Source: Natronomonas sp. (GTDB taxonomy: Archaea > Halobacteriota > Halobacteria > Halobacteriales > Haloarculaceae). From it: a DNA stretch of 50,279 bases. The stretch covers positions 1 to 50,279 of the forward strand of contig NZ_JAQCNO010000050.1 of NCBI RefSeq assembly GCF_028274965.1. The letters run 5' to 3'. Under the pieces are notes generated by a model. That model was not told the DNA's origin. It saw only the letters and a program-made list of their open reading frames with translations, and did no database searches. Below are positions 5,169 through 18,596 of this stretch, in pieces. How positions within the stretch are numbered: the stretch's first letter is position 1; each line of letters opens with the position of its first letter. The translations under genes and the position numbers were made by a program.

Positions 5169-7169
5169 CTACCCCGCCTCGGGCGAATCGAACTTCTCCA
5201 GTAGCTCCGCGTAGAACCCGCTCGTCTCGCGTTCGGCGAGCTTCTCGACGATGAGCTCCGGCGTCGACCGCGCCAGGTGGTCCTTGACGGGCGAGCGGTT
5301 CACCCGGAGCTCCCCGTCCTTGAGGCCGACCGCCTCGATCCCGTCGACGTTCACGTCGACCGCCGCGGCCTCGCGGATCTCGCCGGCGAGATGCGAGACG
5401 AACACCGCCGTCGAGTCGCTTTCGGTCAGCGCCTCGAGGATGCCCGCGATGATCACGGCGCTCGCGCCGGGCTCCGTGATCGACTCCAACTCGTCGACCA
5501 ACACCAGCCGCGTCCGGTCGCCCTCGACGAGCGAGCCGAACTCCCGCAGCGTCGACTCGAACGCCCCGGCGTCGAGCGTCCCTTGCGATTTCGCCTGGTA
5601 GTGCAGCGCCTCGAAGCGCTCGGTCCGGACGCGCTCGGCCGGCACGGGCAGCCCCATCTGGGCCAACACGACGACCGCGCCGACGAGATCCAGCGTCGAC
5701 GTCTTCCCGCCGCTGTTGACCCCGGAGAGAAGCGACACGCCCTCGACGGCGTAATCGACCGCTTCGACGGCCTCGAAGGGAACGTCCAACAGCGGCGAGC
5801 GCCCGCCCTCGATCGAGACGCCCCGCCCCTCGATCGTCGGGAACGCACACTCGAAGTCCTCGGCGAACCGCGACACGGCGAGCTCGACGTCGATCTCTAG
5901 GGCGTCGCCGACGAGCTTCTCGGCCGGCTCGCGCATCGCGCCGAGCTCCTCGGCGAGCTCCCGTTTCAGCCGGGTGCCGCGGCGGTCGCGCTCGGCGGTG
6001 AGTTCCTCCCGGAGCCGCTCGACGACGCGCTCGTCGCGCTCGACCGGATAGGTCGGCTCCTCGGTGAACACCCGCCTCGCGAGCGACTCGTGGTCCGTCA
6101 CCCCGAGCGTCTCGACGAGGTCGGTCCGCGCCGCCTCGATCGCGTCGGCGAACTCCGAGTCGAGTTCCCGCTCGAGCAGCGAGTCGACGCCGGCCCCGCG
6201 CTCGACGAGGGACAGCAGGTCCGTGCCCTCGATCGTCACGTCGCGCTCCTCGATCGCCGCCCGGAGGCGGTCGTTCGCGACCCCCTCGGCCATCGAGACC
6301 GCGGCCTCGAGGTCGTCCAGCGCCGCCTCCAAACCCTCCAGTCGGTCGTCCCCGGCGACGGTCCCGTCGGCGCCGAGGCGTTCGAGCGCCGCCTCCAGGG
6401 CCGCGAGGTCGCACCCGGCGTCCGCCCCCGCGGCGCGGTGGACGGCCGCGGCCGCCCGTATCCGATCGCGGTTCCGGGCGAAAAACGCGAGCGTCCGCTC
6501 GGGGACGACCGACGCCGGGCTCCGCAGGGCCTCGGGCCGCACCCGCACGTCGCCGTCGATCTCGACCCCGGAAAAGGCCTCGTCTAAGACGATGACCGTC
6601 GAGTACCCCCGCGCGAGGTCCGCGATCGCCCGCGCGTTGTCGACCAACTCGACGCTCATCTCCGGGACGGCCTCGGTCGCCGCCGAGAACGTCTCGGCGT
6701 CGTTCGTCGCCAGACAGCGGTCCCGGACCCGCACGTCCCGCGGGGGTTCGAGCGGTTCGACGCCCGAGAGCGCCTCGATGAGCTCCGGGGTCGGCTCCCG
6801 CTCGACGGCCGCCTCGGCCATCGCCCTGACCTCGGCGATCCGGTCGGCCGAGGCGCTCGGGTAGAACGTCCGGAGCCGCTTTCTGCCGTACTCCGTGACC
6901 GCCCGCTCCTCGAGCAACCCGAGGACCGACTCGTACAGTTCCCGCGCCCGGTCGGTCGCCAGAAACGACCCCTCGTCGCCGTGGCGGTGTCGGATCGCCG
7001 CCCGGACGATCCGCGCGGCCCGCCCGTCGCTGATCCCCGGTGCGCGCGCGATCGCCGAAACGTCCCCCGCCGCCAGCGCCGCCGCGGGGTCGTCGAGTTC
7101 GGCCAGCCGCGCCGCCGTCTTCTCGCCCACGCCGTCGATCGCCGTCAGGTCGTCGAACGCCCCGCTCAC
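5169..7169 (-). CDS. MutS-family ATPase with N-terminal helix-hairpin-helix (MutS5/MutS2-like)
   Basis: The 666-residue protein has a helix-hairpin-helix at its N-terminus (about 1-55: LTAIDGVGEKTAARLAELDD), then long helical segments, and a C-terminal MutS ATPase (about 440-666). The Walker A is GVNSGGKTSTL (about 483-492) and the Walker B is RLVLVDELES. It lacks the N-terminal mismatch-recognition domain of MutS1. A role in recombination or branched-DNA processing is more likely than classical mismatch repair. The start is GTG at 7169, overlapping the polymerase DP2 stop as GTGA on the minus strand, so it is probably co-translated with DP2. The subclass is uncertain. Confidence 0.85.
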   Translation of the reverse strand: MSGAFDDLTAIDGVGEKTAARLAELDDPAAALAAGDVSAIARAPGISDGRAARIVRAAIRHRHGDEGSFLATDRARELYESVLGLLEERAVTEYGRKRLRTFYPSASADRIAEVRAMAEAAVEREPTPELIEALSGVEPLEPPRDVRVRDRCLATNDAETFSAATEAVPEMSVELVDNARAIADLARGYSTVIVLDEAFSGVEIDGDVRVRPEALRSPASVVPERTLAFFARNRDRIRAAAAVHRAAGADAGCDLAALEAALERLGADGTVAGDDRLEGLEAALDDLEAAVSMAEGVANDRLRAAIEERDVTIEGTDLLSLVERGAGVDSLLERELDSEFADAIEAARTDLVETLGVTDHESLARRVFTEEPTYPVERDERVVERLREELTAERDRRGTRLKRELAEELGAMREPAEKLVGDALEIDVELAVSRFAEDFECAFPTIEGRGVSIEGGRSPLLDVPFEAVEAVDYAVEGVSLLSGVNSGGKTSTLDLVGAVVVLAQMGLPVPAERVRTERFEALHYQAKSQGTLDAGAFESTLREFGSLVEGDRTRLVLVDELESITEPGASAVIIAGILEALTESDSTAVFVSHLAGEIREAAAVDVNVDGIEAVGLKDGELRVNRSPVKDHLARSTPELIVEKLAERETSGFYAELLEKFDSPEAG

Positions 7170-10100
7170 ATGAAGTCCTCGATCCCGCTTTGCTTGTTGG
7201 TGTCGTCCTCGAAGACGGACTCGACCGCGCGCTGTAGTATCTCGAGTCGCTGTTTGGTGTACTCCCGGCAGCCGTACTCCGATGCGACCCGCATCGCGGT
7301 GTCGATGTACTTCTTGACCGACCCCTCGTGGACGGTGAGCGCGACCCGGCCGCCGCACTCCCGACAGTCGCCCGAAAGCGGCACCCGCCGGAACTTCTCG
7401 CCGCAGTCCAGACACCGCGTTTCCTGCCGCGAGAACGCCCGGAGGTTGCCGATGATGTCCGGCAGGAAGTGGTACTCGATGACCCGCTCGGCGACGTCGG
7501 TCTCGTCGACCGCCCGCAGTTTCCGGGCGAGTTCCAGTTGGGCGTTCATCTTCTCCATCATATCCCCGAGCGTCTTGTACGCCGACAGATCCGGGCCCGC
7601 CGCGATGTCGGCCGTGTCGTGGGTGTGATCGAACCCGCGGTACTCCCCGTCGGTGCCGAGGGTGTCCTCGCCGAGTCGTATCAGCCCTTCGACCTCGCCG
7701 GGGTCGGCCATCCGCCGCGTCGCCTCGTAGAACTCCCTTGGGTATGACCGGACGATGTCCATGTTGTGGGCCTCGTCGTCGATCTCGGAGGGGTCGATCC
7801 GGGAGGACATGACCAGGGGCGCGTCCATCCTCCCGCCCCGCTGGTCGGGGAGAAACGACTTCGAGAAGTTGATCAGCCCGTCCATGAGCAACATTACGCA
7901 GTCCTCGTCGCCGTCGCACTGACCGACGAACACGTCGTTGGCGACGAGCGTGTTGGTCCCTTCGACGGTCACACAGTAGGTGTGTTCGACAGCCGATTCG
8001 ACGATCTCCACGTCGACGACTTCGTCCAGCCACACGTCGCCGCCGTCGCCGAAGAGACGCTGTGTTCGTGTTTCAACGCCTTCGACGGCGTCCGCGAGCG
8101 TCTCGGATTTCCGATCGAGGTCGAAACCCACGCGGTCCGCGAACCGGACCGCGTTCTGCGAAGTGATTTTCAGGACCCACGTTTCGAACGACCGGGGCTC
8201 GTCGTAACACTCCGCGATCGCACCGGTCTCCGGGGTACGCTCTTCGCTGTACACCTTCGTGGCGACGCCGAACCGCTTGAGCGCCGCGACGAGGTCCGAC
8301 TTGAGTTCGTCGCTGACGGTGTGTGCGCGCACCTCGACGCGGTCGCTTGCGGTGCTACCGTCGCCCGAAACGTACGCTGCGAGGAACGAGCGCAACACGG
8401 GGTCCGGTGCCGAGAGGACACGACGCGGGATGCGTTTCGTCTCGGCTCGACTGCCCGCATCAAGGACGTCCGCGAACAGCGTCGTCACGAGACGGCTGGA
8501 CACCGTGATCTTCCACTCGTTTTCCTCGAACGCGTCGACGTTTAGCGTCTCCGCGAACGTTTCGGTCAGTTCTGCCCGGGGTGTCTCCTCGGGCGTACAG
8601 ATGGTCGTCTGATAGAACGAGCCGTCCTCTTTCCGCGTGAAACCTTCCGCAGCGTAGTACCCGAGCAGTGTGCCGACGGCCTCGTCGAGTTCGAAGTGAC
8701 GGGGGATTTCAGCGGTGTCACGTCGGACACTCAGGGTAACGTCGTCGGGAACCCGATCGAGTACGGTTTCGCGGTCAAACAGTTCGAGGAACGCGTCCAC
8801 GGGGACGCTGTCACGAGACACCCGGTTGTGCGCCGTCGAATCGCTCACTCCGAGACGTTCCGCGACGGGGTTCAGGTAGCTGTCCGCGTCGGTCGCGTCA
8901 TCGAGCAGTTCCCTGAGACGGGCTTTGCCGAGGCCGCGAACCATGAGGTCCTCGTTCGGGATAGAACCGGCATCGAGGAACTCGGCGAGCAGGTCGACTG
9001 TCTCGGCCGATCCGTCGACAGAGACCTGTTTCGGCGCCGGTATCGCGTCGCCCTCGGTAAGCCTGTGTGCCGCGACGCGCTCGATACTGCCGTTTTCCCG
9101 GCGCCGCATCGAGTGGTCCGGCGTTACGGTCAGTTCGCGTCCGGCTCTTGTCTCGACCCGGATGAGATGGTCGGGAGAGGGGTGTTTCGAGACTGTCTCG
9201 ACCCGCTGGCGCGTCCGCTCGCCCCCCTCGGTGAGTGACGGTACAAACACGTCGGTGTCGAGTTGCTGTACGAGCGCGCCGAAGTCGTCCTTGTCGGCGG
9301 TTTCCGGGTTAAGATGCCCTTTGACCAGCGTCTCGATCTCCTCGTAGTGCCAGCCGTCGTCTTCGTACCAGAGTTTGGTTTCGGGATGGAAGCAGTTCCG
9401 GCGCTTGGCGGCGTGGAAGTACGGGTGTGCGTACCCGACCGCCGCCGACGTGAACCCGATCACCCTGCCGACGACCGCCGCCGAGGTGTGCGGCGCCATC
9501 CCGAAGACCAACTCGCCGACGAGGTCCTCGCGGGTCTCGAGTTCGTAGTACCGCTCCATCCCGTAGTACTGCGCCAAGAGGTCGTCCACGAAGTCCGCGG
9601 TCCGCATCATGTGCTCGGCGGCCCCGTCGGACAGCACCACGTCCTGGACGCGCAACCCGACGAGTTGGTCCTCGTGGGTCAGCGCCTCGCCGTGGACGTC
9701 CGTCTCGTAGCCGAGGGCCCGCAGCCGGTCCGCGGAGACGTCGAGTTCGGCGGGTCGGACCGACGTGACCGGCAGGTCCGTCATGTCGTATCTGACGGTG
9801 CCGTCCTTGAACGACGACACGCCGTTTTTCGCCCGCAGGATCCCCTTCTCGATCGGCTCGGGGACCTTGTGCTCCGAGGAGAGCCCCTGTACGCCTTTCA
9901 GCACCTCGAAGGCGTTCTCGCGCTCGCCGACGGCCTCCAGCGCCGAGCGGTACTCCGCGTTGACGTCTATCGTCGTTCGCTGGACCGCGTCCGCCTCGGT
10001 CTCACAACGCGGACAGACCGCCCGCCCCGCGGCGTCGGGTTCGACGTCGATCTCGCAGCTGTGACAGACGTAGTGGGGCTCGGTCACGCCGTTGCAGTCC

Positions 10101-12274
10101 GGACACCGCGACCGGAACGTCGCCGTCCCGCAGGCGCGACAGCGCCGCCGCCCGACCTGGGCCTCGATCTCGCCCGGCGTGTCCCGCATCGTGTCGGCGT
10201 GCTTTGCGGCCTTCGCGATGTCGCGCTGTGCGCCGCCGGCCTCGCCGATCGGAAACAGCGTGTGGACCGCCGGCGAGAGGTCGCGCTTCTCGGATTTTTC
10301 GGGGCGGCCCATCCGACAGCCGATCCGGGTCGGGGCCCGCTCGCGGACCTCGAAGGGCGCGACCTCGTTGACGGCCTCGACGGCGTTCTCGCCGCCCTCG
10401 TACTCTCTCGCCGCCGCCGAGAGGCGCTCCCAGGTCAACTCGAGGTCGTCCGTGGCCCCGAGCGAACGGACGAACGGGCCCGCGTCCGGGACCGTGATCG
10501 TCTCCTCGCCCCGGCTGTGTTCGACCAACAGGACCTCGAGAGCCTCCCGCACCGGGTCGGCGTCCTCGACGACGAGCGTCCGCCCCGCCGTCGCCCCCGG
10601 CGCTTCGAGCGCCGACCCGTCGGACTCGACCCAGTCCCCGTCGGCCACCGCGTCGGCGAGCGCCTCGAAGCGGCCGACGTCGAGGTCGTGCCAGAGGTAC
10701 GTGTACTCGGGGTGCAACGGCGCGTCGTACGCCTCGGCCCACTCTAAGGCCCGCTCGGCGCTCGGGTGTTCGAGGTCGACCCGCGGCGCGTCCGCGAGCG
10801 CCTGGACGTCCGCGCCGGCGGCCGCGAGGTCCTCGCGCCACCACTCGACGGTGTAGCTCGCCGGCGACAGCGGGTGGTTGTTCTCGACGAACTCGCCGTA
10901 GTTGACGAGGTACTCCCCGGCGTCGAGGATCGCCTCGACGCCGTTTCTGACCGCGCGCGCCTCCTCCGGGTCGTCGATCCGCCGGACGTCGCCGTTCGCG
11001 AGCCTGACGGTCGGCCCCTCGATGGTGTCCACGGGGACCACCCCGGCGGCCTTGCCGGGGCGCTCGGTCTTGATCTGCGTGCCCGCCGCGAGGAAGTCGT
11101 CGAGGAGGTGCATCGTCGCCGGGTGGACCCCGGCGGTCGCGAAGCCGTGGTTCCGCGCCCGGCCGTACCGGAGCCGAAACCCTCCCTCCTCGGAGGGGTG
11201 TCCGAACACCGGCCGCCCGGCGATGAGGTCCCTGAGGAACTTCGCCTCCGGCTCGGGGCGGGCGGGGCCGCTCGGCGCCCGCCCGCCCGTCGCGTCGCCG
11301 GGATCGGCCGTGAGCTCGGCCTCGGTCTCGGGACCGCCCGCGCCGTCCTCGGAGCGCGCGCCGCTCTCGGCGACTGCCCCCTCTGTGTCCCCGCCGCCGG
11401 CGTCCGGTTCGCTCGCCCCTTCTGACTGTTTGTACGTCCCGTCGATGAGATCCTCCAGCCACGGCCACTCGACCTCCTCGAGTCGGGACGTGTACCGCTG
11501 GATCTTCGGGGCCTTCTGTGCGATCCCCTCGCCCAACACGAGGCACATGCCGCCGCGGGCGTTGTTCGTGTCGACCCGTTCGAGGTCCCGGAACCCCGAG
11601 ACCTCCTCGTCGCCCGTCGCCTCCCCGTCGAGCATGATCGGCATGTTCCGGGCGATGAACTTCGCCTCGGCGTCCTTCGGGGCGTACTGCAGCCCCGTCT
11701 CGTCGTCGTACAGCGACAGCTCCTCGGCGTAGCGCTCGATCTCGTCGTCCCGCGGGCCGTACTCCTCGATCCCGACGAGCGTTCGCGTGTAGTCGGCGAC
11801 GAGGACCGACAGCGCCTGTGCGGTCCCGCCGGCCGAGCGGATCGGCCCGGCGTAGTAGATGTTGACGAACTCCGTCCCGTCGTCGTTTTCCAACACCTCG
11901 ACGCGGTCGATCCCCTCGATGGGCGCGGCGACGACGCCCTCGGTCAACAGCGCAACGGCCGTCCGGACCGCGCCCTCGACTTTCCCTGCGGGCGTGTCGT
12001 ACTCCCCGACGGTCCCGTCGGCGAAGTCGGCCGCCAACTCCAGGGCCGCCTCCTCGCGCGAGAGGTCGGGGTCGGCCTCCATCTCCCGGACCCGCTCGGC
12101 GACGCCGTCGATCCCGAGGATGTTCTCGACGCGGTCGGCCATGTCCTTCGCGATCGGGATCTCGACGTCGTCCGTCGGGTCCCCACCGCGCCGTCTCGCC
12201 TCCTCGGCCACCTCGAGGGCCTCCTCGAGGCCGGATTCCAAGCGCTCGAAGTACCGCTCGTCGTCGGGCCGCAT
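7166..12274 (-). CDS. polC: DNA polymerase D large subunit DP2 with intein
   Basis: This 1702-residue precursor contains DP2, the catalytic subunit of the euryarchaeal replicative polymerase PolD. Supporting motifs are NARGGMCLVLGEG (about residue 240), the internal zinc fingers CRACGTATFRSRCPDC and CHSCEIDV..CPRCE, and the extein motif KRRN|CDGDEDCVMLLMDG around the active site. A C-terminal zinc module (CLDCGEKF..CRECGGRV) that contacts DP1 or PCNA follows. The intein occupies residues 961-1452; after splicing DP2 is 1210 residues. An acidic low-complexity insert (about 285-345) is halophile-typical. Its start abuts the stop of the PPC gene, and its stop overlaps the MutS-like start. DP1 is about 0.8 kb upstream. 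Confidence 0.96.
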   Translation of the reverse strand: MRPDDERYFERLESGLEEALEVAEEARRRGGDPTDDVEIPIAKDMADRVENILGIDGVAERVREMEADPDLSREEAALELAADFADGTVGEYDTPAGKVEGAVRTAVALLTEGVVAAPIEGIDRVEVLENDDGTEFVNIYYAGPIRSAGGTAQALSVLVADYTRTLVGIEEYGPRDDEIERYAEELSLYDDETGLQYAPKDAEAKFIARNMPIMLDGEATGDEEVSGFRDLERVDTNNARGGMCLVLGEGIAQKAPKIQRYTSRLEEVEWPWLEDLIDGTYKQSEGASEPDAGGGDTEGAVAESGARSEDGAGGPETEAELTADPGDATGGRAPSGPARPEPEAKFLRDLIAGRPVFGHPSEEGGFRLRYGRARNHGFATAGVHPATMHLLDDFLAAGTQIKTERPGKAAGVVPVDTIEGPTVRLANGDVRRIDDPEEARAVRNGVEAILDAGEYLVNYGEFVENNHPLSPASYTVEWWREDLAAAGADVQALADAPRVDLEHPSAERALEWAEAYDAPLHPEYTYLWHDLDVGRFEALADAVADGDWVESDGSALEAPGATAGRTLVVEDADPVREALEVLLVEHSRGEETITVPDAGPFVRSLGATDDLELTWERLSAAAREYEGGENAVEAVNEVAPFEVRERAPTRIGCRMGRPEKSEKRDLSPAVHTLFPIGEAGGAQRDIAKAAKHADTMRDTPGEIEAQVGRRRCRACGTATFRSRCPDCNGVTEPHYVCHSCEIDVEPDAAGRAVCPRCETEADAVQRTTIDVNAEYRSALEAVGERENAFEVLKGVQGLSSEHKVPEPIEKGILRAKNGVSSFKDGTVRYDMTDLPVTSVRPAELDVSADRLRALGYETDVHGEALTHEDQLVGLRVQDVVLSDGAAEHMMRTADFVDDLLAQYYGMERYYELETREDLVGELVFGMAPHTSAAVVGRVIGFTSAAVGYAHPYFHAAKRRNCFHPETKLWYEDDGWHYEEIETLVKGHLNPETADKDDFGALVQQLDTDVFVPSLTEGGERTRQRVETVSKHPSPDHLIRVETRAGRELTVTPDHSMRRRENGSIERVAAHRLTEGDAIPAPKQVSVDGSAETVDLLAEFLDAGSIPNEDLMVRGLGKARLRELLDDATDADSYLNPVAERLGVSDSTAHNRVSRDSVPVDAFLELFDRETVLDRVPDDVTLSVRRDTAEIPRHFELDEAVGTLLGYYAAEGFTRKEDGSFYQTTICTPEETPRAELTETFAETLNVDAFEENEWKITVSSRLVTTLFADVLDAGSRAETKRIPRRVLSAPDPVLRSFLAAYVSGDGSTASDRVEVRAHTVSDELKSDLVAALKRFGVATKVYSEERTPETGAIAECYDEPRSFETWVLKITSQNAVRFADRVGFDLDRKSETLADAVEGVETRTQRLFGDGGDVWLDEVVDVEIVESAVEHTYCVTVEGTNTLVANDVFVGQCDGDEDCVMLLMDGLINFSKSFLPDQRGGRMDAPLVMSSRIDPSEIDDEAHNMDIVRSYPREFYEATRRMADPGEVEGLIRLGEDTLGTDGEYRGFDHTHDTADIAAGPDLSAYKTLGDMMEKMNAQLELARKLRAVDETDVAERVIEYHFLPDIIGNLRAFSRQETRCLDCGEKFRRVPLSGDCRECGGRVALTVHEGSVKKYIDTAMRVASEYGCREYTKQRLEILQRAVESVFEDDTNKQSGIEDFM
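7919..9394 (-). mobile_element. Intein with LAGLIDADG homing endonuclease in DP2
   Basis: The 492-residue intein lies exactly between RRN and CDGDED of the DP2 catalytic motif. It starts with Cys (CFHPETKLWYED), has a block-B-type ELTVTPDHSM, and ends EGTNTLVANDVFVGQ before the +1 Cys. The last residue is Gln, not Asn, and the penultimate is Gly, not His. Between the splicing halves lie two LAGLIDADG motifs (LLGYYAAEGF and FLAAYVSGDGS), plus an HTH-like segment (RLGVSDSTAHNRVSR). An endonuclease able to spread the intein at this site is therefore probably intact. The DNA looks less GC-rich than the surrounding extein. A Gln-ended PolII intein that still splices is known from Pyrococcus. Confidence 0.93.
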
Positions 12275-13078: not shown

Positions 13079-14767
13079 TCAGGAGAACTTCCGGACGGTC
13101 ATCCCGAGCGTGTCCAACTCGAGGATCGGCGCGAACCCGGCGTCCGGATCGATGTTGACGCTGCGCTGGAACTCCGTTTGGGCCTGCCAACAGCCGGAGT
13201 TGACCGCCAGCACGTTCCGGTACTTCCCCCACCCGAGTTTGTGCACGTGCCCGGTGTGAAAGACGTCCGGCACCTCGTCCATGACGAGGTAGTCCTTCTG
13301 TTCGGGGGCCAGACGCGTGTGACCGCCGAACTGCGGGGCGACGTGGCGCTTTTTCAACAGCTGGTACATCGCCCTGTGGGGCTTCTCGTAGCTCGCTTTC
13401 CCCTCGGGGAGCTCCGCGATCACCTCGTCGATCGAGACGCCGTGGTACATGAGCACCGAGACGCCCTCGATCGTCACCATCGCCGGGTTCGAGACGATCC
13501 GCGCGTCGTGGGCGGTCATGATCCCACGCAGCTCCTCGTCGAAGCCCGGCTGTGGCTCGGCCAGCCGCACGGCGTCGTGGTTCCCCGGGATCATGACGAT
13601 CTCGATGTCGCCGGGGACCTCCTTGAGGCGCTCGGAGAACGCGCGGTACTGATCGAAGATGTCGACGATCTCCAGTTCCTCGTCCTGGTCGGGGTAGACG
13701 CCGACGCCCTCGACCATGTCCCCGGCGATGAGGAGGTACTCGATCCGGGCGGCCTCCGGGGTGTGCAGCCAGGCGGCGAACTCCCGCCACGCCTCGGCCA
13801 TGAACTCCTGGCTCCCGACGTGGACGTCGCTTATCAGCGCGGCCTGGACGTGCCTGTCGGCCGTCGAGGGCTCGTGCGTCCGGGGCACGTCCGGGAAGTA
13901 CAACTCGTCGACGAACAGGATCCCGCCGTCGTCGGAGAGCGTCCCCTCGACGGCGATGACCTCGTCGTACAGCAACTCGTCGACGAGGTCGGCGATCGGC
14001 CTGTCTTTCATGACCAGACAGGGGAACACGCCCGTCGTGTCCTCGAGTTCGACGAGCCAGTGGCCCGAGGCCGTCGAGCGGATGTCCGAGATCATCCCGA
14101 TCATGCCGGCGTCGCCGCCGCCGGGGCTCGACTGCATTGCCGCCGCGTTGCGGTGGGTGACGCGGCCCCGCAGCGTCCCCGCGAGGCGCTCGTAGCGGTC
14201 CCGGAACGTCGAGACGAAGTCGTCGTACTCGCCCGTTCCGGTCGAGTAGCCCGTCATGTCGTTGCCGACCTCGAGCGAGCGCAGCGACGGATCGACGGTC
14301 CGCGTCGCCTCCCCCTCGGACGGTTCTTCGGCCCCAGCCGTCGTCGCCGGAGCGCCCTCCTCGCGTGTCGGCTCCCGGCCCTCCTCCGTTACCCCCTTCG
14401 TTTCGACTGGAACTCCCTCGGAGTCGTGGTTCGGCTTCTCGGGGCGTTCTCCAGTCGAAACGAAGGGGTCGGGCCGGTCGGTCCCGTCCGGATCCGGAGC
14501 GGCGCCCTCGCCGGTATCGCCCGTCGGTTCCGCCGCCGTCCCGGCGTCCGCGATCGGGTTCCGGCCGTCTCGGGGGGCCTCGGTAAGCACCGCCCGAACG
14601 TCCGCCGCCGTGAGCTTCAGCGCCCCCTCGGCGGTCGCCTCGACGGCCACGGCGAGCGCCTCGGCGGTGTCCTCGGCCCTCGCCAGCAGCGTGATCGCCT
14701 CCCTGTCGGCGGCGTACCCGTGGGCCGCGAGCTCCCGGGCGATGCGGGCCGGCTCCTCCTGTGGCAC
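13079..14767 (-). CDS. polB: DNA polymerase D small subunit DP1 (3'-5' exonuclease)
   Basis: This 562-residue protein is DP1, the proofreading subunit of PolD. A helical N-terminal domain (about 1-65) precedes a long acidic linker (about 70-170), an OB fold (about 195-300) and a calcineurin-like phosphodiesterase domain (about 310-562). Metal-binding motifs are ISDVHVGS, AGDMVEGVG, IPGNHDAVR, MYHGVSID and HTGHVHKLG, all intact, so exonuclease activity is expected. Translation starts at GTG 14767 (GTG CCA CAG GAG). The linker DNA carries a perfect inverted pair of origin-recognition-box-like sequences (14393-14468). Confidence 0.95.
   Translation of the reverse strand: MPQEEPARIARELAAHGYAADREAITLLARAEDTAEALAVAVEATAEGALKLTAADVRAVLTEAPRDGRNPIADAGTAAEPTGDTGEGAAPDPDGTDRPDPFVSTGERPEKPNHDSEGVPVETKGVTEEGREPTREEGAPATTAGAEEPSEGEATRTVDPSLRSLEVGNDMTGYSTGTGEYDDFVSTFRDRYERLAGTLRGRVTHRNAAAMQSSPGGGDAGMIGMISDIRSTASGHWLVELEDTTGVFPCLVMKDRPIADLVDELLYDEVIAVEGTLSDDGGILFVDELYFPDVPRTHEPSTADRHVQAALISDVHVGSQEFMAEAWREFAAWLHTPEAARIEYLLIAGDMVEGVGVYPDQDEELEIVDIFDQYRAFSERLKEVPGDIEIVMIPGNHDAVRLAEPQPGFDEELRGIMTAHDARIVSNPAMVTIEGVSVLMYHGVSIDEVIAELPEGKASYEKPHRAMYQLLKKRHVAPQFGGHTRLAPEQKDYLVMDEVPDVFHTGHVHKLGWGKYRNVLAVNSGCWQAQTEFQRSVNIDPDAGFAPILELDTLGMTVRKFS
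14393..14468. repeat. Inverted pair of origin-recognition-box (ORB)-like elements inside the DP1 gene
   Basis: The 19-mer TCCAGTCGAAACGAAGGGG occurs on the plus strand at 14450-14468 and perfectly inverted at 14393-14411, with 38 bases between. Both arms point their G-string outward. The sequence fits my recollection of the archaeal (mini-)ORB, TCCAnnnGAAAC followed by a G-run, which is bound by Orc1/Cdc6. It lies in the DP1 linker, where the arms encode PVETKG and PFVSTGE. The spacer is GC-rich with no AT-rich unwinding region and no orc1/cdc6 gene is in the window, so a full origin is unlikely. Confidence 0.7.
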
Positions 14768-14875: not shown

Positions 14876-16795
14876 TCATTTGAACCGGAACGTTTCGAGG
14901 TTCTTCGGCGCGAACGTCCGGATGTTGAAATCGTGGTACATCGCCGAGGAGAGGTCCTGCACGGAGGACTCGTCGCCGTGCACGCAGAGCACCTTCTCCG
15001 GGCGGGGGTTCATCGTCCGGACGAAGTTCATCAGCCCCTGCCGGTCGGCGTGCCCCGAGAACCCGTCGACGGTTTCGATGTCCATGTGCAACGCGAGCGT
15101 CCCGCGGTCGCTCGCCCGGTCGTTCATCGGGATCTCGTCCCAGCCGTTCTGGATCCGACGGCCCAGGGTCCCTTGGGCCTGGTAGCCGACGAACACGAGC
15201 GAGGAGTCGGACTCGCCCCCGACGTGGTTGAGCCACGACATGATCGGGCCGCCCTCGATCATCCCCGACGTGGAGAGGATGATACAGGGGCCGCCGTCGG
15301 CGATCTCCTGGCGCTCGTCCTCGCCGCCGTCGATGTGGTTGAACTGCTCGGCGAGAAAGGGGTTCTCGTCGTCGTGGAAGATCCGCTCTTGGAGGTCGTC
15401 CCGGAGGTACTCGGGGTAGGTCGTGTGGATCGCCGTCGCCTCCCAGATCATGCCGTCGAGGTGGACCGGGACCGTCGGGATCTCCCCTTTCCGCATCGCC
15501 TCCTCTAGGACGAGCATGATCTCCTGGGATCGCCCGACGGCGAAGGCGGGGATCAGTATCTTCCCGCCCTCCTGTGTCGTCTCGCGGACGATCTCCTCGA
15601 GGTTCCGCTCGGAGTCCTCCTGGTCGGTCTGGTAGTCGTTCCGACCGCCGTAGGTCGACTCCATGACGAGCGTCTCCACGCGCGGGAAGTCGTTGACCGC
15701 GCCGTTGAACAGCCGGGTGTCGTCGTAGTGGATGTCCCCGGAAAACGCGACGTTGTAGAGGCCGTCGCCGATGTGGAAGTGCGTGACCGCCGACCCGAGG
15801 ATGTGCCCCGCGTTGTGGAAGGTGAGTTTGATGTCCGGCGCAACGTCGGTCACGTCGCCGTACTCCAGCGGGATGCAGTGTTTGATCGCCTCTCTGACCT
15901 GCTCGGACTCGTAGGGCGGCGTCCGGCCCTCCTTGGCCGCGACGTCGAGATAATCGAGCGTGAGCAGGCCCATCAGGTCCCGCGTCGGTTCGGTGCAGTA
16001 GATCGGCCCGTCGTAGCCGTACTTGAACAAAAGCGGGACGAGCGCCGAGTGATCGAGGTGGGCGTGCGTCAACACGACCGCGTCGAGGTTCGCCGCCCCG
16101 GCCCCGAGCGCCTCGGGGACCTGCAGGTACGGCACCTCCCCCTCCGCGCCGGGCTTGTCGCCGCAGTCGATGAGCACGCGGGTCTCGGGCGTGTTGAGAA
16201 TGAACGCCGCCCGCCCGACCTCCCGGCAACAGCCGAGCGTGGTGATCCGCACCCACTCGTCGTCGGACATCTCCTCGCGGTGGATCTGCCTGCCGATGCG
16301 CTCGAGGATGTCCCGGCGATCGTCGCGCTCCTGTTTCAGGAAGTTCCGGACGTTCGAGACCGTCGAGGACTCGATCGGCGGCGTCCGGACGACCTCCGGC
16401 GTCCAGCCGACCTCCTGGGTGATCTCCCGGAGCGTCGAGCCGTGGCGGCCGATGACGACGCCGGGCTTTTCGGCCTCGATCACGACCTCCCCGGTGTCGG
16501 AGTGGAAGTCCAACCCCGTGACGCCCGCCTCCTCGGGGATCACCCCCCGGATCCGCTCTCGGGCCTCGCTCGGCCGCACGAGGACCTCGGGATCCGGCCG
16601 CACCGTGATCCGCTTTCGGAGCTTCGAGGCGAGCCGCCGGATCAGGTCCCCGTCGCTCGCGAACTTCTTCGGATCGCGGGTGTAGATGACCAACTCCGGG
16701 CCCTCGTAGGTCACGTCGGACACGGAGATGTCGTTGGGGACCTCGCTTACGATCGTTGCCTTGATATCATCGAGTTTCCGCTCTACTGCACTCAT
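14876..16795 (-). CDS. fttA: aCPSF1/FttA, archaeal KH-metallo-beta-lactamase-beta-CASP ribonuclease and transcription terminator
   Basis: The 639-residue protein is the archaeal homologue of CPSF73. Two KH-type RNA-binding regions lie at the N-terminus (about 1-150; IGRHGSTLREI is the second GxxG motif). The metallo-beta-lactamase domain follows with THAHLDHS (about 245), HNAGHILGSA and SGDIHYDD. A beta-CASP domain (MESTYGGRND onward) and the returning lactamase segment (GFSGHADRQGL, LCVHGD) complete it. The family cleaves nascent RNA at U-rich 3' ends and releases RNA polymerase. All zinc ligands appear intact and the length is standard. It lies upstream of DP1 on the same strand, 108 bases away. 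Confidence 0.96.
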   Translation of the reverse strand: MSAVERKLDDIKATIVSEVPNDISVSDVTYEGPELVIYTRDPKKFASDGDLIRRLASKLRKRITVRPDPEVLVRPSEARERIRGVIPEEAGVTGLDFHSDTGEVVIEAEKPGVVIGRHGSTLREITQEVGWTPEVVRTPPIESSTVSNVRNFLKQERDDRRDILERIGRQIHREEMSDDEWVRITTLGCCREVGRAAFILNTPETRVLIDCGDKPGAEGEVPYLQVPEALGAGAANLDAVVLTHAHLDHSALVPLLFKYGYDGPIYCTEPTRDLMGLLTLDYLDVAAKEGRTPPYESEQVREAIKHCIPLEYGDVTDVAPDIKLTFHNAGHILGSAVTHFHIGDGLYNVAFSGDIHYDDTRLFNGAVNDFPRVETLVMESTYGGRNDYQTDQEDSERNLEEIVRETTQEGGKILIPAFAVGRSQEIMLVLEEAMRKGEIPTVPVHLDGMIWEATAIHTTYPEYLRDDLQERIFHDDENPFLAEQFNHIDGGEDERQEIADGGPCIILSTSGMIEGGPIMSWLNHVGGESDSSLVFVGYQAQGTLGRRIQNGWDEIPMNDRASDRGTLALHMDIETVDGFSGHADRQGLMNFVRTMNPRPEKVLCVHGDESSVQDLSSAMYHDFNIRTFAPKNLETFRFK

Positions 16796-16982
16796 ACGTT
16801 AGAAATCCTTGCTTCGGGCTCCGGTCGCTCCGCGTCCACGCCCCGGGTTCGACGGGACGTACAGGTTCGCCGACTGTATCGGTGACAACAGGTCATATGG
16901 ACTCGGTCTGCGGTGGCCGCCGCCGCCGACGGCCGCGGGAGCTACCGGAAAACCCGCTCGTAACCGAGTCTAACCCACCACT

Positions 16983-16992
16983 GATATAAAAC
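16983..16992 (+). promoter_or_regulatory. TATA-like box for the 17010 gene
   Basis: GATATAAAAC ends 18 bases before the ATG at 17010, in the 214-base divergent space shared with fttA. This implies a leaderless or nearly leaderless transcript. Confidence 0.5.
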
Positions 16993-17009
16993 CCTTCGCA
17001 AAGTGGCGC

Positions 17010-17492
17010 ATGGAGATCACGCCGACCGCCGTCGCCGAGGAGCACGACAGGCTGCGGGCCGACGAAGCGATCCCCGCGCTGATAAACGACGTCCGCGACC
17101 GACTCGGGCCGCTGTTCGGGACCGAGGTCAACCCGGTCACCGCGGCGGCCTACCGCGAGGCGGTGGACGCGGTGTTCGCCGACGGCGACCGCGCCGTGAA
17201 CGTGACCGCTCTCTGTGCGCTCCTCCGGGACCTCGATTGTCAGGGGGACTACCCGGGGTTCGTCGTCGACGAGTTCCTCGGCCGGAAGCTCGCGGCGACG
17301 ATCGCCGGCGGGGAGCCGTCCGCGCTCCTCGCGGAGGCGACGTTTCACTTCGCCGACGTCCACACCCACGGCGGGTCCGACGACCCGGCCGGCGCCGACG
17401 ACCTCGAGGCCGCCCTCGCCGCCGGGTTCCAGACCCGACTCCCCGGGTGGGCCTGGACGGAGTCGCCGAGTCCCTTCGCTTCGACGCGCTGA
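17010..17492 (+). CDS. Conserved-looking soluble protein of unknown function
   Basis: The 160-residue acidic protein has no membrane segment or signal peptide. It looks helical, with a central LCALLRDLDCQGDYPGFVVDEFLGRKLAATIAGG region split by two Cys and a FHFADVHTHGG segment whose clustered His and Asp could bind a metal. I do not recognise a family. It is read divergently from fttA and is followed 66 bases later by the Brp/Blh-like gene, from which it may be independent. The start is the first ATG after the TATA-like box. Confidence 0.6.
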   Translation: MEITPTAVAEEHDRLRADEAIPALINDVRDRLGPLFGTEVNPVTAAAYREAVDAVFADGDRAVNVTALCALLRDLDCQGDYPGFVVDEFLGRKLAATIAGGEPSALLAEATFHFADVHTHGGSDDPAGADDLEAALAAGFQTRLPGWAWTESPSPFASTR

Positions 17493-17558
17493 CGGGATGA
17501 TAAACCCCCACGGAACCGTGGCCCACAACCGAGGCCGCCGAAGCCGGTACGACCGTGT

Positions 17559-18596
17559 ATGGCGACCGTCGAGACGCGGATCGGGCGGCTCCGCACCGAC
17601 CGGTGGCGATGGCTGCTGTCGGCCTCCCGGATCGCTCTGCTCGCCTCGATCGGGTGGTTCCTGCTCGCGCGGTGGGCGAACGTCTCGCTCGACGTGCGGA
17701 CCCAGGCCGGGATCTATCTCTTCGGGATGGTCGTTTTGAACCTCCCGTACGGCGGCTACGAGCACATGTCGAACCTCCGGAGCCGCGGGCTCCCGTTCGG
17801 CGCCCGCTACATCGGGCTGTACCTGCTCGCGGCCGCGGCGTTCGTTGCGCTGTTTTTCGCCGCGCCGGTCGTCGGCCTCGCCGTCGCCATCGCCGTCGCC
17901 GTCATCAAGGGCGGCCACGGCGGCCTGCGGGTGCTCGACGCCCTCGTCGGCACCGACCACCTCCGGACCGGACCACAGCGCGCCCTCGCCGCGTTCGTCC
18001 GCGGCGGCACCGTGATGATCGTCCCGATGTACGCCTGGCCCGGCGACTTCGCGGCGTTCTCGACGTTCATGATCGACATCTTCCAGCCGGGGGCATTCGC
18101 GGCCGTTGCGCCGCACTTCCCGACGGTGCGCTCGCTTTGGGGGGGCGTCTTCGCCGTCGCCGTCGGGGCCCACGTTGCCCTCGGATTCGCCCGCCGCGAG
18201 GGGCTCTCGACGTGGCTCGTCGACGTCGGCGAAACGGCGCTTTTGATCGCGTACTTCGCCGTCGTTCCGGTCCTCGTCGCCGTCGGGCTGTACTTTCCGC
18301 TTTGGTACTCGCTGCGACAGAGTGCCCGCGCCGAGGCGATCAAGAACGAACACCCCGCCGACCCCGGATCGGCCCCCTCGCCGGGGGCGGTCGTCGCCGC
18401 GTTCGTCGGCGGGACGGTCGCCACGTTCGGCCTCGCCGCCCTGTTGGCGACGCTCGCCCCGAACCCGCTTTCGGGCGGGACGCCCCTCGTCAGCGGCGTC
18501 GCCTTCTTCAGCGTCTTCATCAGCATCGTCGCGCTCCCCCACGTCGTCGTGGGCGATTGGCTCGACGCCGACCGCGGCATCTGGTACACGCCCTGA
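17559..18596 (+). CDS. Brp/Blh-family membrane protein (beta-carotene dioxygenase-like, diverged)
   Basis: This 345-residue membrane protein has about eight hydrophobic segments. The order of motifs follows Brp/Blh beta-carotene 15,15'-dioxygenases, which cleave beta-carotene to retinal: LNLPYGGYEH for the family PHGxxDH, KGGHGG, YFPLWYSLRQ for YFxxWHSxRH, and ALPHVVVGDW near the end. Several histidines that hold the catalytic iron in the family are replaced here (PH to PY, WHSxRH to WYSLRQ), so retinal formation is doubtful. The gene is 41 bases before a carotenoid desaturase, so a role in carotenoid metabolism or binding is likely. The start at 17559 fits the first membrane segment. Confidence 0.7.
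   Translation: MATVETRIGRLRTDRWRWLLSASRIALLASIGWFLLARWANVSLDVRTQAGIYLFGMVVLNLPYGGYEHMSNLRSRGLPFGARYIGLYLLAAAAFVALFFAAPVVGLAVAIAVAVIKGGHGGLRVLDALVGTDHLRTGPQRALAAFVRGGTVMIVPMYAWPGDFAAFSTFMIDIFQPGAFAAVAPHFPTVRSLWGGVFAVAVGAHVALGFARREGLSTWLVDVGETALLIAYFAVVPVLVAVGLYFPLWYSLRQSARAEAIKNEHPADPGSAPSPGAVVAAFVGGTVATFGLAALLATLAPNPLSGGTPLVSGVAFFSVFISIVALPHVVVGDWLDADRGIWYTP

What the first reader, a model, noticed from the sequence alone, without database searches (positions are those of the whole stretch)
14393..14468. Perfect inverted pair of Orc1/Cdc6 recognition boxes inside the DNA polymerase D small-subunit gene
TCCAGTCGAAACGAAGGGG at 14450-14468 is repeated exactly, inverted, at 14393-14411. The core TCCAnnnGAAAC plus a G-run is the archaeal mini-ORB as I recall it. 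Two 19-bp perfect arms 38 bases apart are not expected by chance. They lie in the variable linker of DP1, where DNA sequence can be selected with little protein cost. With no AT-rich unwinding region and no orc1/cdc6 gene nearby, they may be an initiator-binding site that is not a normal origin: initiator titration, feedback of Orc1 on PolD expression, or a dormant origin.
Basis: partly seen in the sequence, partly recalled or inferred. Interest (0 to 1): 0.78.

Follow-up and report, generated by a model that had tools for sequence, protein, structure and literature searches.

The report
Conserved Orc1-box pair inside PolD gene
Salt-loving archaea keep, inside the gene for a DNA polymerase subunit, two facing copies of the DNA word that their replication-starter protein is expected to recognise, nearly always the same distance apart, which suggests a control site for starting DNA replication that has not been tested.

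Summary
In detail: two identical 19-bp arms (14393-14411, 14450-14468), inverted, 38 bp apart, inside the PolD small-subunit (DP1) gene. They match the haloarchaeal origin recognition box (ORB). The genome has 10 strict ORBs: 7 on the contig of orc1 and oriC1, 2 here, 1 elsewhere; reversed-pattern control 0. It is no local accident: 131 of 391 class genomes carry a strict pair, a relaxed pair is in 67 of 81 DP1 loci with spacer 38 (64) or 35 bp (3), and in 23 of 30 genomes lacking the strict pair. Selection is on DNA: rare codons are fixed in the arms; the free positions do not covary, against an RNA hairpin. DP1 boxes lack the G-string of oriC1 (4 of 90 have it, against 115 of 135), which a plasmid-borne oriC1 needs (PMC3936714), and an AT-rich core: probably a binding site, not an origin. 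It persists with DP1 11-74 kb from oriC1. I favour an origin-proximal Orc1 sink; feedback on DP1 is the main rival. Orc1 binding is untested. ORBs in DP1 of Thermococcales were noted in 2008 (PMC2643942).

The parts
14393..14411 (-). ORB arm (3' arm in the DP1 reading direction), TCCAGTCGAAACGAAGGGG; codons CCA GTC GAA ACG AAG GGG
   Evidence: codon statistics
14412..14449 (.). 38-bp spacer: length nearly invariant among pairs found, sequence little conserved, not AT-rich
14450..14468 (+). ORB arm (5' arm in the DP1 reading direction, there read as CCCCTTCGTTTCGACTGGA; codons CCC TTC GTT TCG ACT GGA)
   Evidence: codon statistics
13079..14767 (-). DP1, DNA polymerase D small subunit gene (562 aa), host of the pair; arms in the variable linker

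Best explanation
The pair is a conserved, non-origin binding element for the oriC1 initiator Orc1 in the class Halobacteria. Two Orc1 molecules are expected to sit on the two boxes in mirror orientation at a fixed distance (inferred). It most likely works as an origin-proximal initiator sink: because DP1 lies near oriC1 it is duplicated soon after initiation, and the new copy then draws Orc1 away from oriC1 and helps to prevent re-firing (inferred, by analogy with datA and with the oriC2D region of Haloarcula hispanica). Shown here: ORB sequence, DNA-level conservation, fixed spacing, absence of the origin-specific G-string and AT-rich core, and retention when DP1 is 11-74 kb from oriC1. Not shown: binding, and any effect on initiation. 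I put about 0.8 on the first sentence and about 0.4 on the sink.
For: Rarity: 10 strict ORBs in the genome, 7 on the oriC1 contig, 2 here, control 0. Over the 31 genomes the reversed control gave 1 match (G252). Class-wide pair: strict in 131 of 391 genomes, no control match in the listing; all 30 places fetched lie in DP1. Spacer 38 bp in 64 and 35 bp in 3 of 67 pairs found in 81 loci, while the distance from the start codon takes 30 values between 212 and 458 nt in 66 rows. Codon-shuffled genes: 0 of 1200 give a pair with at most 3 mismatches, against 60 of 80 real genes. Codons: GAA 66 of 66, CCA 60 of 60 Pro, GTT 49 of 49 Val, ACT 48 of 48 Thr, GGA 49 of 49 Gly, against shares in the DP1 genes of 0.30, 0.11, 0.09, 0.08, 0.11; with protein-only anchoring CCA 59 of 60 and GAA 60 of 60; one per genus group, GAA 39 of 39 and third bases T, T, A at three arm-1 codons 39 of 39. 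G-string (at least 4 G in the 5 bases after GGGGT): DP1 boxes 4 of 90, oriC1 pair boxes 115 of 135; mutating either G-string cost a plasmid-borne minimal oriC1 of H. hispanica its function (PMC3936714, section read). Sink: in 26 genomes, each with orc1 within 3 kb of the pair taken as oriC1, 40 of 177 strict ORBs are in DP1, and of 57 others more than 5 kb from oriC1, 49 lie within 200 kb (7.5 expected if uniform on the contig). oriC2D, an ORB-rich region without origin activity, restrains oriC2, likely by Cdc6E titration according to its authors (PMC3936714, passages). DP1 further from oriC1: 11-17 kb in six genomes of the window's genus (G037 counted across the contig ends), 58 kb in G099 with arm 1 degenerate, 74 kb in G229 with a strict pair.
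Against: No binding data. Two boxes are few for titration (oriC2D has 11), and titration by itself does not need a fixed spacing. Of 10 Haloferax loci none is strict in both arms, Halorubrum keeps one strict arm in 10 of 11 loci and no pair in any, and 7 of 30 genomes lacking the strict pair show no relaxed pair either, so it is dispensable in some lineages. Some relaxed pairs rest on one good arm and a weak one with 3-4 mismatches, a level that chance also reaches at other spacings (second-best rows). Codon shares are gene-wide; in linker codons 60-140 third bases A and T are commoner (0.16 each against 0.08). Boxes near orc1 also lack the G-string (3 of 51 have it), so its absence marks non-pair boxes in general. 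An intragenic element travels with its gene, so persistence at a distance does not prove action in trans. In G005 an ORB pair without orc1 lies 156 kb from DP1, so nearness to oriC1 may not be universal. Species are related, so counts are not independent.
Confidence: 0.45

Rival explanations
1. Feedback of Orc1 on PolD: Orc1 bound to the pair, 200-460 nt inside the gene, acts as a roadblock to transcription and tunes DP1 expression to initiator availability.
For: All 30 fetched strict pairs lie in DP1, and the pair stays with DP1 when the gene is not beside orc1 (12 of 13 loci without orc1 in the fetched stretch); 7 of these 13 have DP2 downstream instead. Orc1-family proteins can regulate genes (Orc1-2, PMC9738581, start of abstract in the listing only).
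Against: The distance to the start codon varies widely (212-458 nt), so it is no promoter-linked operator; it does not explain why other isolated ORBs also cluster near oriC1.
Confidence: 0.3
2. Cryptic helicase-loading site or dormant origin: the mirrored Orc1 pair loads MCM without a melting region and fires only under stress or when oriC1 is missing.
For: Same mirror orientation as the oriC1 pair, TCCA ends inward and G ends outward; dormant origins exist in Haloferax mediterranei (PMC4595724, passages).
Against: No AT-rich region (spacer G+C 0.63 on average over 63 sequences); no extended G-string, which plasmid-borne oriC1 needs; the dormant origins reported there lie beside cdc6 genes.
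Confidence: 0.12
3. Protein-level selection: a short linear peptide motif in the DP1 linker (P-x-V-S-T-G ... P-x-E-T-K/E-G) is conserved and the DNA repeat is a by-product.
For: A loose form of the peptide is found in 60 of 80 proteins, and 10 of 11 Halorubrum loci keep PVETEG or PVETKG.
Against: Codons are fixed to rare ones, and the third base stays T or A where the amino acid changes. Over the 90 strict DP1 boxes, those of both arms pooled, motif positions 5-6 are G (81%) and T (84%), and each arm by itself shows the same preference although one is read as the reverse complement.
Confidence: 0.05
4. RNA hairpin in the dp1 mRNA formed by the two arms.
For: In the window the arms are perfectly complementary over 19 bp.
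Against: Perfect arms in only 2 of 66 rows; complementarity at the free positions equals the shuffled level in the 39 rows with at most one mismatch (0.607 against 0.606, z 0.04) and is only weakly above it in all 66 (0.573 against 0.545, z 1.49).
Confidence: 0.03
5. Relic or passenger: part of the old oriC1 neighbourhood with no present role.
For: In most loci DP1 is next to orc1 (67 of 80); the pair is degenerate in several lineages.
Against: Strict pairs in 19 of 43 genus groups and a fixed spacing inside a hypervariable linker speak for continuing selection; 7 of the 8 loci with a full 6-kb upstream flank and no orc1 keep the pair.
Confidence: 0.05

Closest known systems
[quoted passage not shown] 2008, PMC2643942, citing Matsunaga et al. 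2007, which is not held)
   Same: Initiator boxes inside the coding sequence of the same gene, DP1, near oriC and cdc6 (passages read).
   Different: Other phylum (recalled); the passages seen give no fixed-spacing pair and no base-level test. In one DP1 gene from each of 30 non-halobacterial genomes of the window's phylum I found no clear excess of ORB cores (13 against 8.2 expected), so descent from one ancestor is unproven. Thermococcales DNA was not examined.
oriC1 of haloarchaea (inverted ORBs beside orc1/cdc6)
   Same: Core TCCANNNGAAACNNNGGGGT and mirror orientation.
   Different: DP1 pair: 38-bp spacer instead of a longer AT-rich one, no extended G-string, inside a gene, other bases preferred at the free positions.
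oriC2D ORB-rich region of Haloarcula hispanica (PMC3936714, passages)
   Same: A set of ORBs that is no origin and lies apart from the origin proper.
   Different: oriC2D has 11 ORBs in an intergenic region downstream of cdc6E; the DP1 element has two at fixed spacing in a coding region and matches oriC1 boxes.
datA of Escherichia coli (recalled; its DnaA titration is mentioned in PMC3936714)
   Same: Proposed role as a sink for the initiator outside the origin.
   Different: Bacterial DnaA system; no homology.

Membership tests
Haloarchaeal ORB (mini-ORB) element | Core TCCANNNGAAACNNNGGGG, as at the genome's own oriC1 | tested here: met
Haloarchaeal ORB (mini-ORB) element | Bound by Orc1/Cdc6 | not testable with these tools
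   no binding data at hand; the search listed three papers, none of which was opened
oriC1-type replication origin | Two inverted ORBs | tested here: met
oriC1-type replication origin | AT-rich unwinding region between the ORBs | tested here: not met
   38-bp spacer, mean G+C 0.63 over 63 sequences; own oriC1 has 34-42% G+C there
oriC1-type replication origin | Extended halophile G-string on the ORBs | tested here: not met
   4 of 90 DP1 boxes against 115 of 135 oriC1 pair boxes; neither window arm has it
oriC1-type replication origin | Adjacent orc1/cdc6 gene | tested here: not met
   not on the window's contig, though orc1 lies in 67 of 80 relatives' loci
oriC1-type replication origin | Autonomous replication, marker-frequency peak | not testable with these tools
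   needs experiments
Initiator-titration site (oriC2D or datA kind) | Cluster of many initiator boxes outside the origin | tested here: inconclusive
   two boxes only, but 40 of the 177 strict ORBs of 26 genomes
Initiator-titration site (oriC2D or datA kind) | Loss causes over-initiation | not testable with these tools
   needs a recoded strain
DP1-borne ORBs as in Thermococcales | ORBs inside the DP1 coding sequence | tested here: met
   the Thermococcales side only from PMC2643942
DP1-borne ORBs as in Thermococcales | Same ancestral element | not tested
   no Thermococcales sequence fetched; no clear excess in 30 other genomes of the phylum

The most novel reading that the evidence does not exclude
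The DP1 pair is an archaeal initiator-control centre: two Orc1 AAA+ proteins held face to face at a fixed 38-bp distance, without an unwinding region or G-string, form a complex that sequesters or inactivates Orc1 (for example by stimulating its ATP hydrolysis), and the surrounding 200 kb carries further single ORBs that belong to the same origin-domain system.
Probability: 0.25. Interest if true: 0.88.

Novelty: new variant of a known kind. Interest (0 to 1): 0.66.

Why it matters
How archaea keep initiation in check is largely open (my judgement). This gives a precise, small, genetically accessible element (two boxes that can be removed by synonymous changes without touching the protein) and natural reductions (Haloferax, Halorubrum) for comparison. 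It also shows that origin surveys restricted to intergenic regions beside cdc6 genes, as in PMC3528665 (passages), would miss conserved initiator boxes inside genes.

Tried and rejected
RNA hairpin: rejected, no clear covariation of the arms. Peptide motif: rejected as the main cause, codons and bases are fixed across amino-acid changes. Dispersed repeat: rejected. Short-range part of oriC1: disfavoured, since the pair persists at 11-74 kb and in the window's genome the two are on different contigs. Promoter-linked operator: disfavoured, variable distance to the start. ORBs in DP1 of other classes of the phylum: no clear excess in 30 genomes (13 against 8.2 expected). Orientation bias of the isolated ORBs relative to oriC1: not clear, 33 of 57 outward. 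G005 at first looked like an unlinked case, but orc1 lies beside its DP1, so it was not used as one; its 156-kb-distant ORB pair is told as evidence against.

Rows dropped and limits: L074 (same genome as L073) was left out; it is in the 81 rows, in the 80 loci and in the rows grouped. The output was cut in the middle (part of L058 to L062 not shown). may count an oriC1 arm more than once where several pairings fit (154 arms); one search counts each once (135). In some searches I left out the genomes whose ORBs are spread over several contigs or whose oriC1 was unclear (G036, G049, G220, G252, G005), 5 of 31. One search used rounded genome sizes; one search repeats it with contig lengths and a check of orc1 (26 of 26), which changed the expected number within 200 kb from 6.65 to 7.5; for G212 the contig is only 1.1 Mb. 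Loci with short upstream flanks (L013, L015, L022, L025, L027) are weak evidence for lack of linkage. Genus groups were assigned by me from the titles. That genus g1 is Natronomonas is inferred: contig G049:C27 has the length of the Natronomonas sp. LN261 contig of L017.

Full report
What is there. The window is contig C22 of a 2.28-Mb genome in 73 contigs. Its DP1 gene (PolD small subunit, 13079-14767 on the minus strand) carries two identical 19-bp arms in mirror orientation, 38 bp apart. The arms are the haloarchaeal ORB by sequence: the genome's own oriC1 on contig C3 has the same core (TCCACTCGAAACGAAGGGG) on both sides of a 34-42% G+C stretch, upstream of an orc1 gene (Cdc6_C and NCBIfam ORC1-type models). 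Genome-wide there are 10 strict ORBs: 7 on C3, 1 on C15 and these 2; the reversed pattern has none.

It is widely conserved in the class. A strict inverted pair with a gap of 15-45 bp is present in 131 of 391 Halobacteria-class genomes and 39 of 86 genera, with no control match in the listing. All 30 of these places that were fetched lie in DP1. In 81 DP1 loci (80 named loci plus the window) a relaxed pair was found in 67: spacer 38 bp in 64, 35 bp in 3, always in the same codon frame; 29 are strict in both arms, 14 have no pair. By genus group, 19 of 43 have a strict pair, 37 of 43 a pair with at most three mismatches, and 4 none. In 30 genomes chosen because they lack the strict pair, a relaxed pair (1-6 mismatches in all) is visible at 38 bp in 20, at 35 bp in 2 and at 50 bp in 1, and not in 7; several of these rest on one good arm and a weak one. 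Codon-shuffled genes gave 103 of 1200 loose pairs at scattered spacings and none with at most three mismatches, against 60 of 80 real genes. A looser core pattern over 392 genomes of the phylum hit 33: of these, 31 belong to the window's class, 30 with the 38- or 35-bp spacer and one (G039) with a 52-bp spacer outside its DP1 gene, and 2 belong to other classes with different spacings. The listing has 311 genomes outside the class.

Selection acts on the DNA. In 66 rows the arms use GAA 66 of 66 times, CCA for 60 of 60 prolines, GTT for 49 of 49 valines, ACT for 48 of 48 threonines and GGA for 49 of 49 glycines, while in the same genes these codons have shares of 0.30, 0.11, 0.09, 0.08 and 0.11. 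These rows were chosen by DNA match, so I repeated the count with rows found by a protein pattern only, in 60 of 80 proteins: CCA 59 of 60 and GAA 60 of 60, with the third base of three arm-1 codons kept in 59 of 60 across different amino acids; third bases A and T have shares of 0.16 each in the linker. One representative per genus group gives the same result. The distance from start codon to arm 1 takes 30 different values between 212 and 458 nt in 66 rows, while the spacer length is nearly fixed and its sequence little conserved. That is what two protein-binding sites held at a set distance would show. An RNA hairpin is unlikely: the free positions of the two arms do not clearly covary (z 0.04 in 39 good rows, 1.49 in all 66).

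It does not look like an origin. oriC1 pair boxes continue after GGGGT into a second G-run in 115 of 135 cases, but only 4 of 90 DP1 boxes do; other boxes near orc1 also lack it (3 of 51 have it). In Haloarcula hispanica changing either G-string made a plasmid-borne minimal oriC1 lose its function (PMC3936714, section read). The spacer has 63% G+C on average over 63 sequences. DP1 boxes prefer GT at motif positions 5-6, oriC1 boxes mostly CC or CT.

Position relative to oriC1. In 67 of 80 named loci orc1 lies within the fetched stretch; in 66 of these, after dropping L074, it is upstream in the same direction with a median gap of 1189 nt to DP1. In the window's genus (inferred to be Natronomonas) the DP1 boxes lie about 11-17 kb from oriC1 in six genomes (G036, G049, G252, G288, G351, and G037 across the contig ends; orc1 beside oriC1 and the DP1 gene checked in G288 and G351), and 58 kb in G099 with one arm degenerate. 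In G229 of another genus it is 74 kb with a strict pair. Of the 13 loci without orc1, 12 keep a pair with at most two mismatches; among the 8 with a full 6-kb upstream flank it is 7. In 7 of the 13, DP2 lies downstream of DP1, as in the window. A short-range role at oriC1 therefore does not explain the retention.

Mechanism. I take it as a non-origin Orc1-binding element (about 0.8). For what it does, I favour an origin-proximal sink for Orc1 (about 0.4). In the 26 genomes and in G036, G049 and G252 DP1 lies within 75 kb of oriC1; G005, with an extra ORB pair 156 kb away and no orc1 beside it, may be an exception. In the 26 genomes orc1 was found within 3 kb of the presumed oriC1 in all 26; 40 of 177 strict ORBs are in DP1, and of the 57 others more than 5 kb from oriC1, 49 lie within 200 kb (7.5 expected if uniform on the contig; without G212, 48 of 56 against 7.15). 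Haloarcula hispanica has a precedent, oriC2D (PMC3936714, passages). Feedback on DP1 expression is the main rival (0.3). Fixed spacing argues for a defined two-Orc1 complex under either view.

Against this reading: there are no binding data here; no Haloferax locus (0 of 10) is strict in both arms and Halorubrum has no pair (0 of 11) but one strict arm in 10 of 11; two boxes are few for titration; counts across related species are not independent; an element inside a gene moves with the gene.

Known before. Berthon et al. 2008 state that an ORB and mini-ORBs were noticed in the DP1 gene of four Thermococcales, and that cdc6 and DP1 are linked in Thermococcales, Halobacteriales and Methanosarcinales (PMC2643942, passages); the cited Matsunaga paper is not held. 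A review places DP1 of Haloferax volcanii close to oriC1 and orc1 (PMC7776575, passages). In DP1 of 30 non-halobacterial genomes of this phylum there is no clear excess of ORB cores (13 against 8.2). In the listings and in the passages opened from seven of those papers I saw no statement about ORBs in DP1 of haloarchaea; most listed papers were not opened. The two surveys whose methods I saw searched intergenic regions beside cdc6 genes (PMC3528665, PMC4595724, passages). Norais 2007 and Coker 2009 are not held, so a mention there cannot be excluded.

Noticed in passing
26 genomes (analysis): Single strict ORBs away from oriC1 and DP1 cluster around oriC1: 49 of 57 within 200 kb (7.5 expected if uniform on contigs of 1.1-4.5 Mb). 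In the two stretches checked, L223 and L224, no orc1-like gene was found.
   Followed up: partly
L153 (G000:C3:14500-23500), orc1 16665-18419 and upstream; 66 linked loci: ORBs also lie inside or just upstream of orc1 itself (own genome 18210 and 18432; 53 boxes between 350 nt before the aligned part of orc1 and its end over 66 loci), suggesting autoregulation.
   Followed up: partly
L153 7507-8634 (-), C3:22006-23133: A second ORC1-type gene (NF001626, 375 aa) lies about 3 kb on the other side of oriC1; similar weak matches lie in L158 and L159.
   Followed up: no
window 7166-12274 (-): PolD large subunit DP2 with an intein (LAGLIDADG and splicing domains) is the second gene downstream of DP1, and the FttA gene lies directly upstream of DP1; in most named relatives DP1 is beside orc1 instead.
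   Followed up: partly
L155/L156 (G005): A 337-bp-spaced ORB pair without a nearby orc1 lies 156 kb from the orc1-DP1 locus: perhaps an oriC1 separated from its initiator gene by rearrangement.
   Followed up: partly
Haloferax DP1 loci L028, L043, L049, L052, L053, L058, L062, L066, L072, L080: Haloferax DP1 keeps recognisable but imperfect arms (1-4 mismatches in all), with TGCA for TGGA and usually GAAGC for GAAAC.
   Followed up: no
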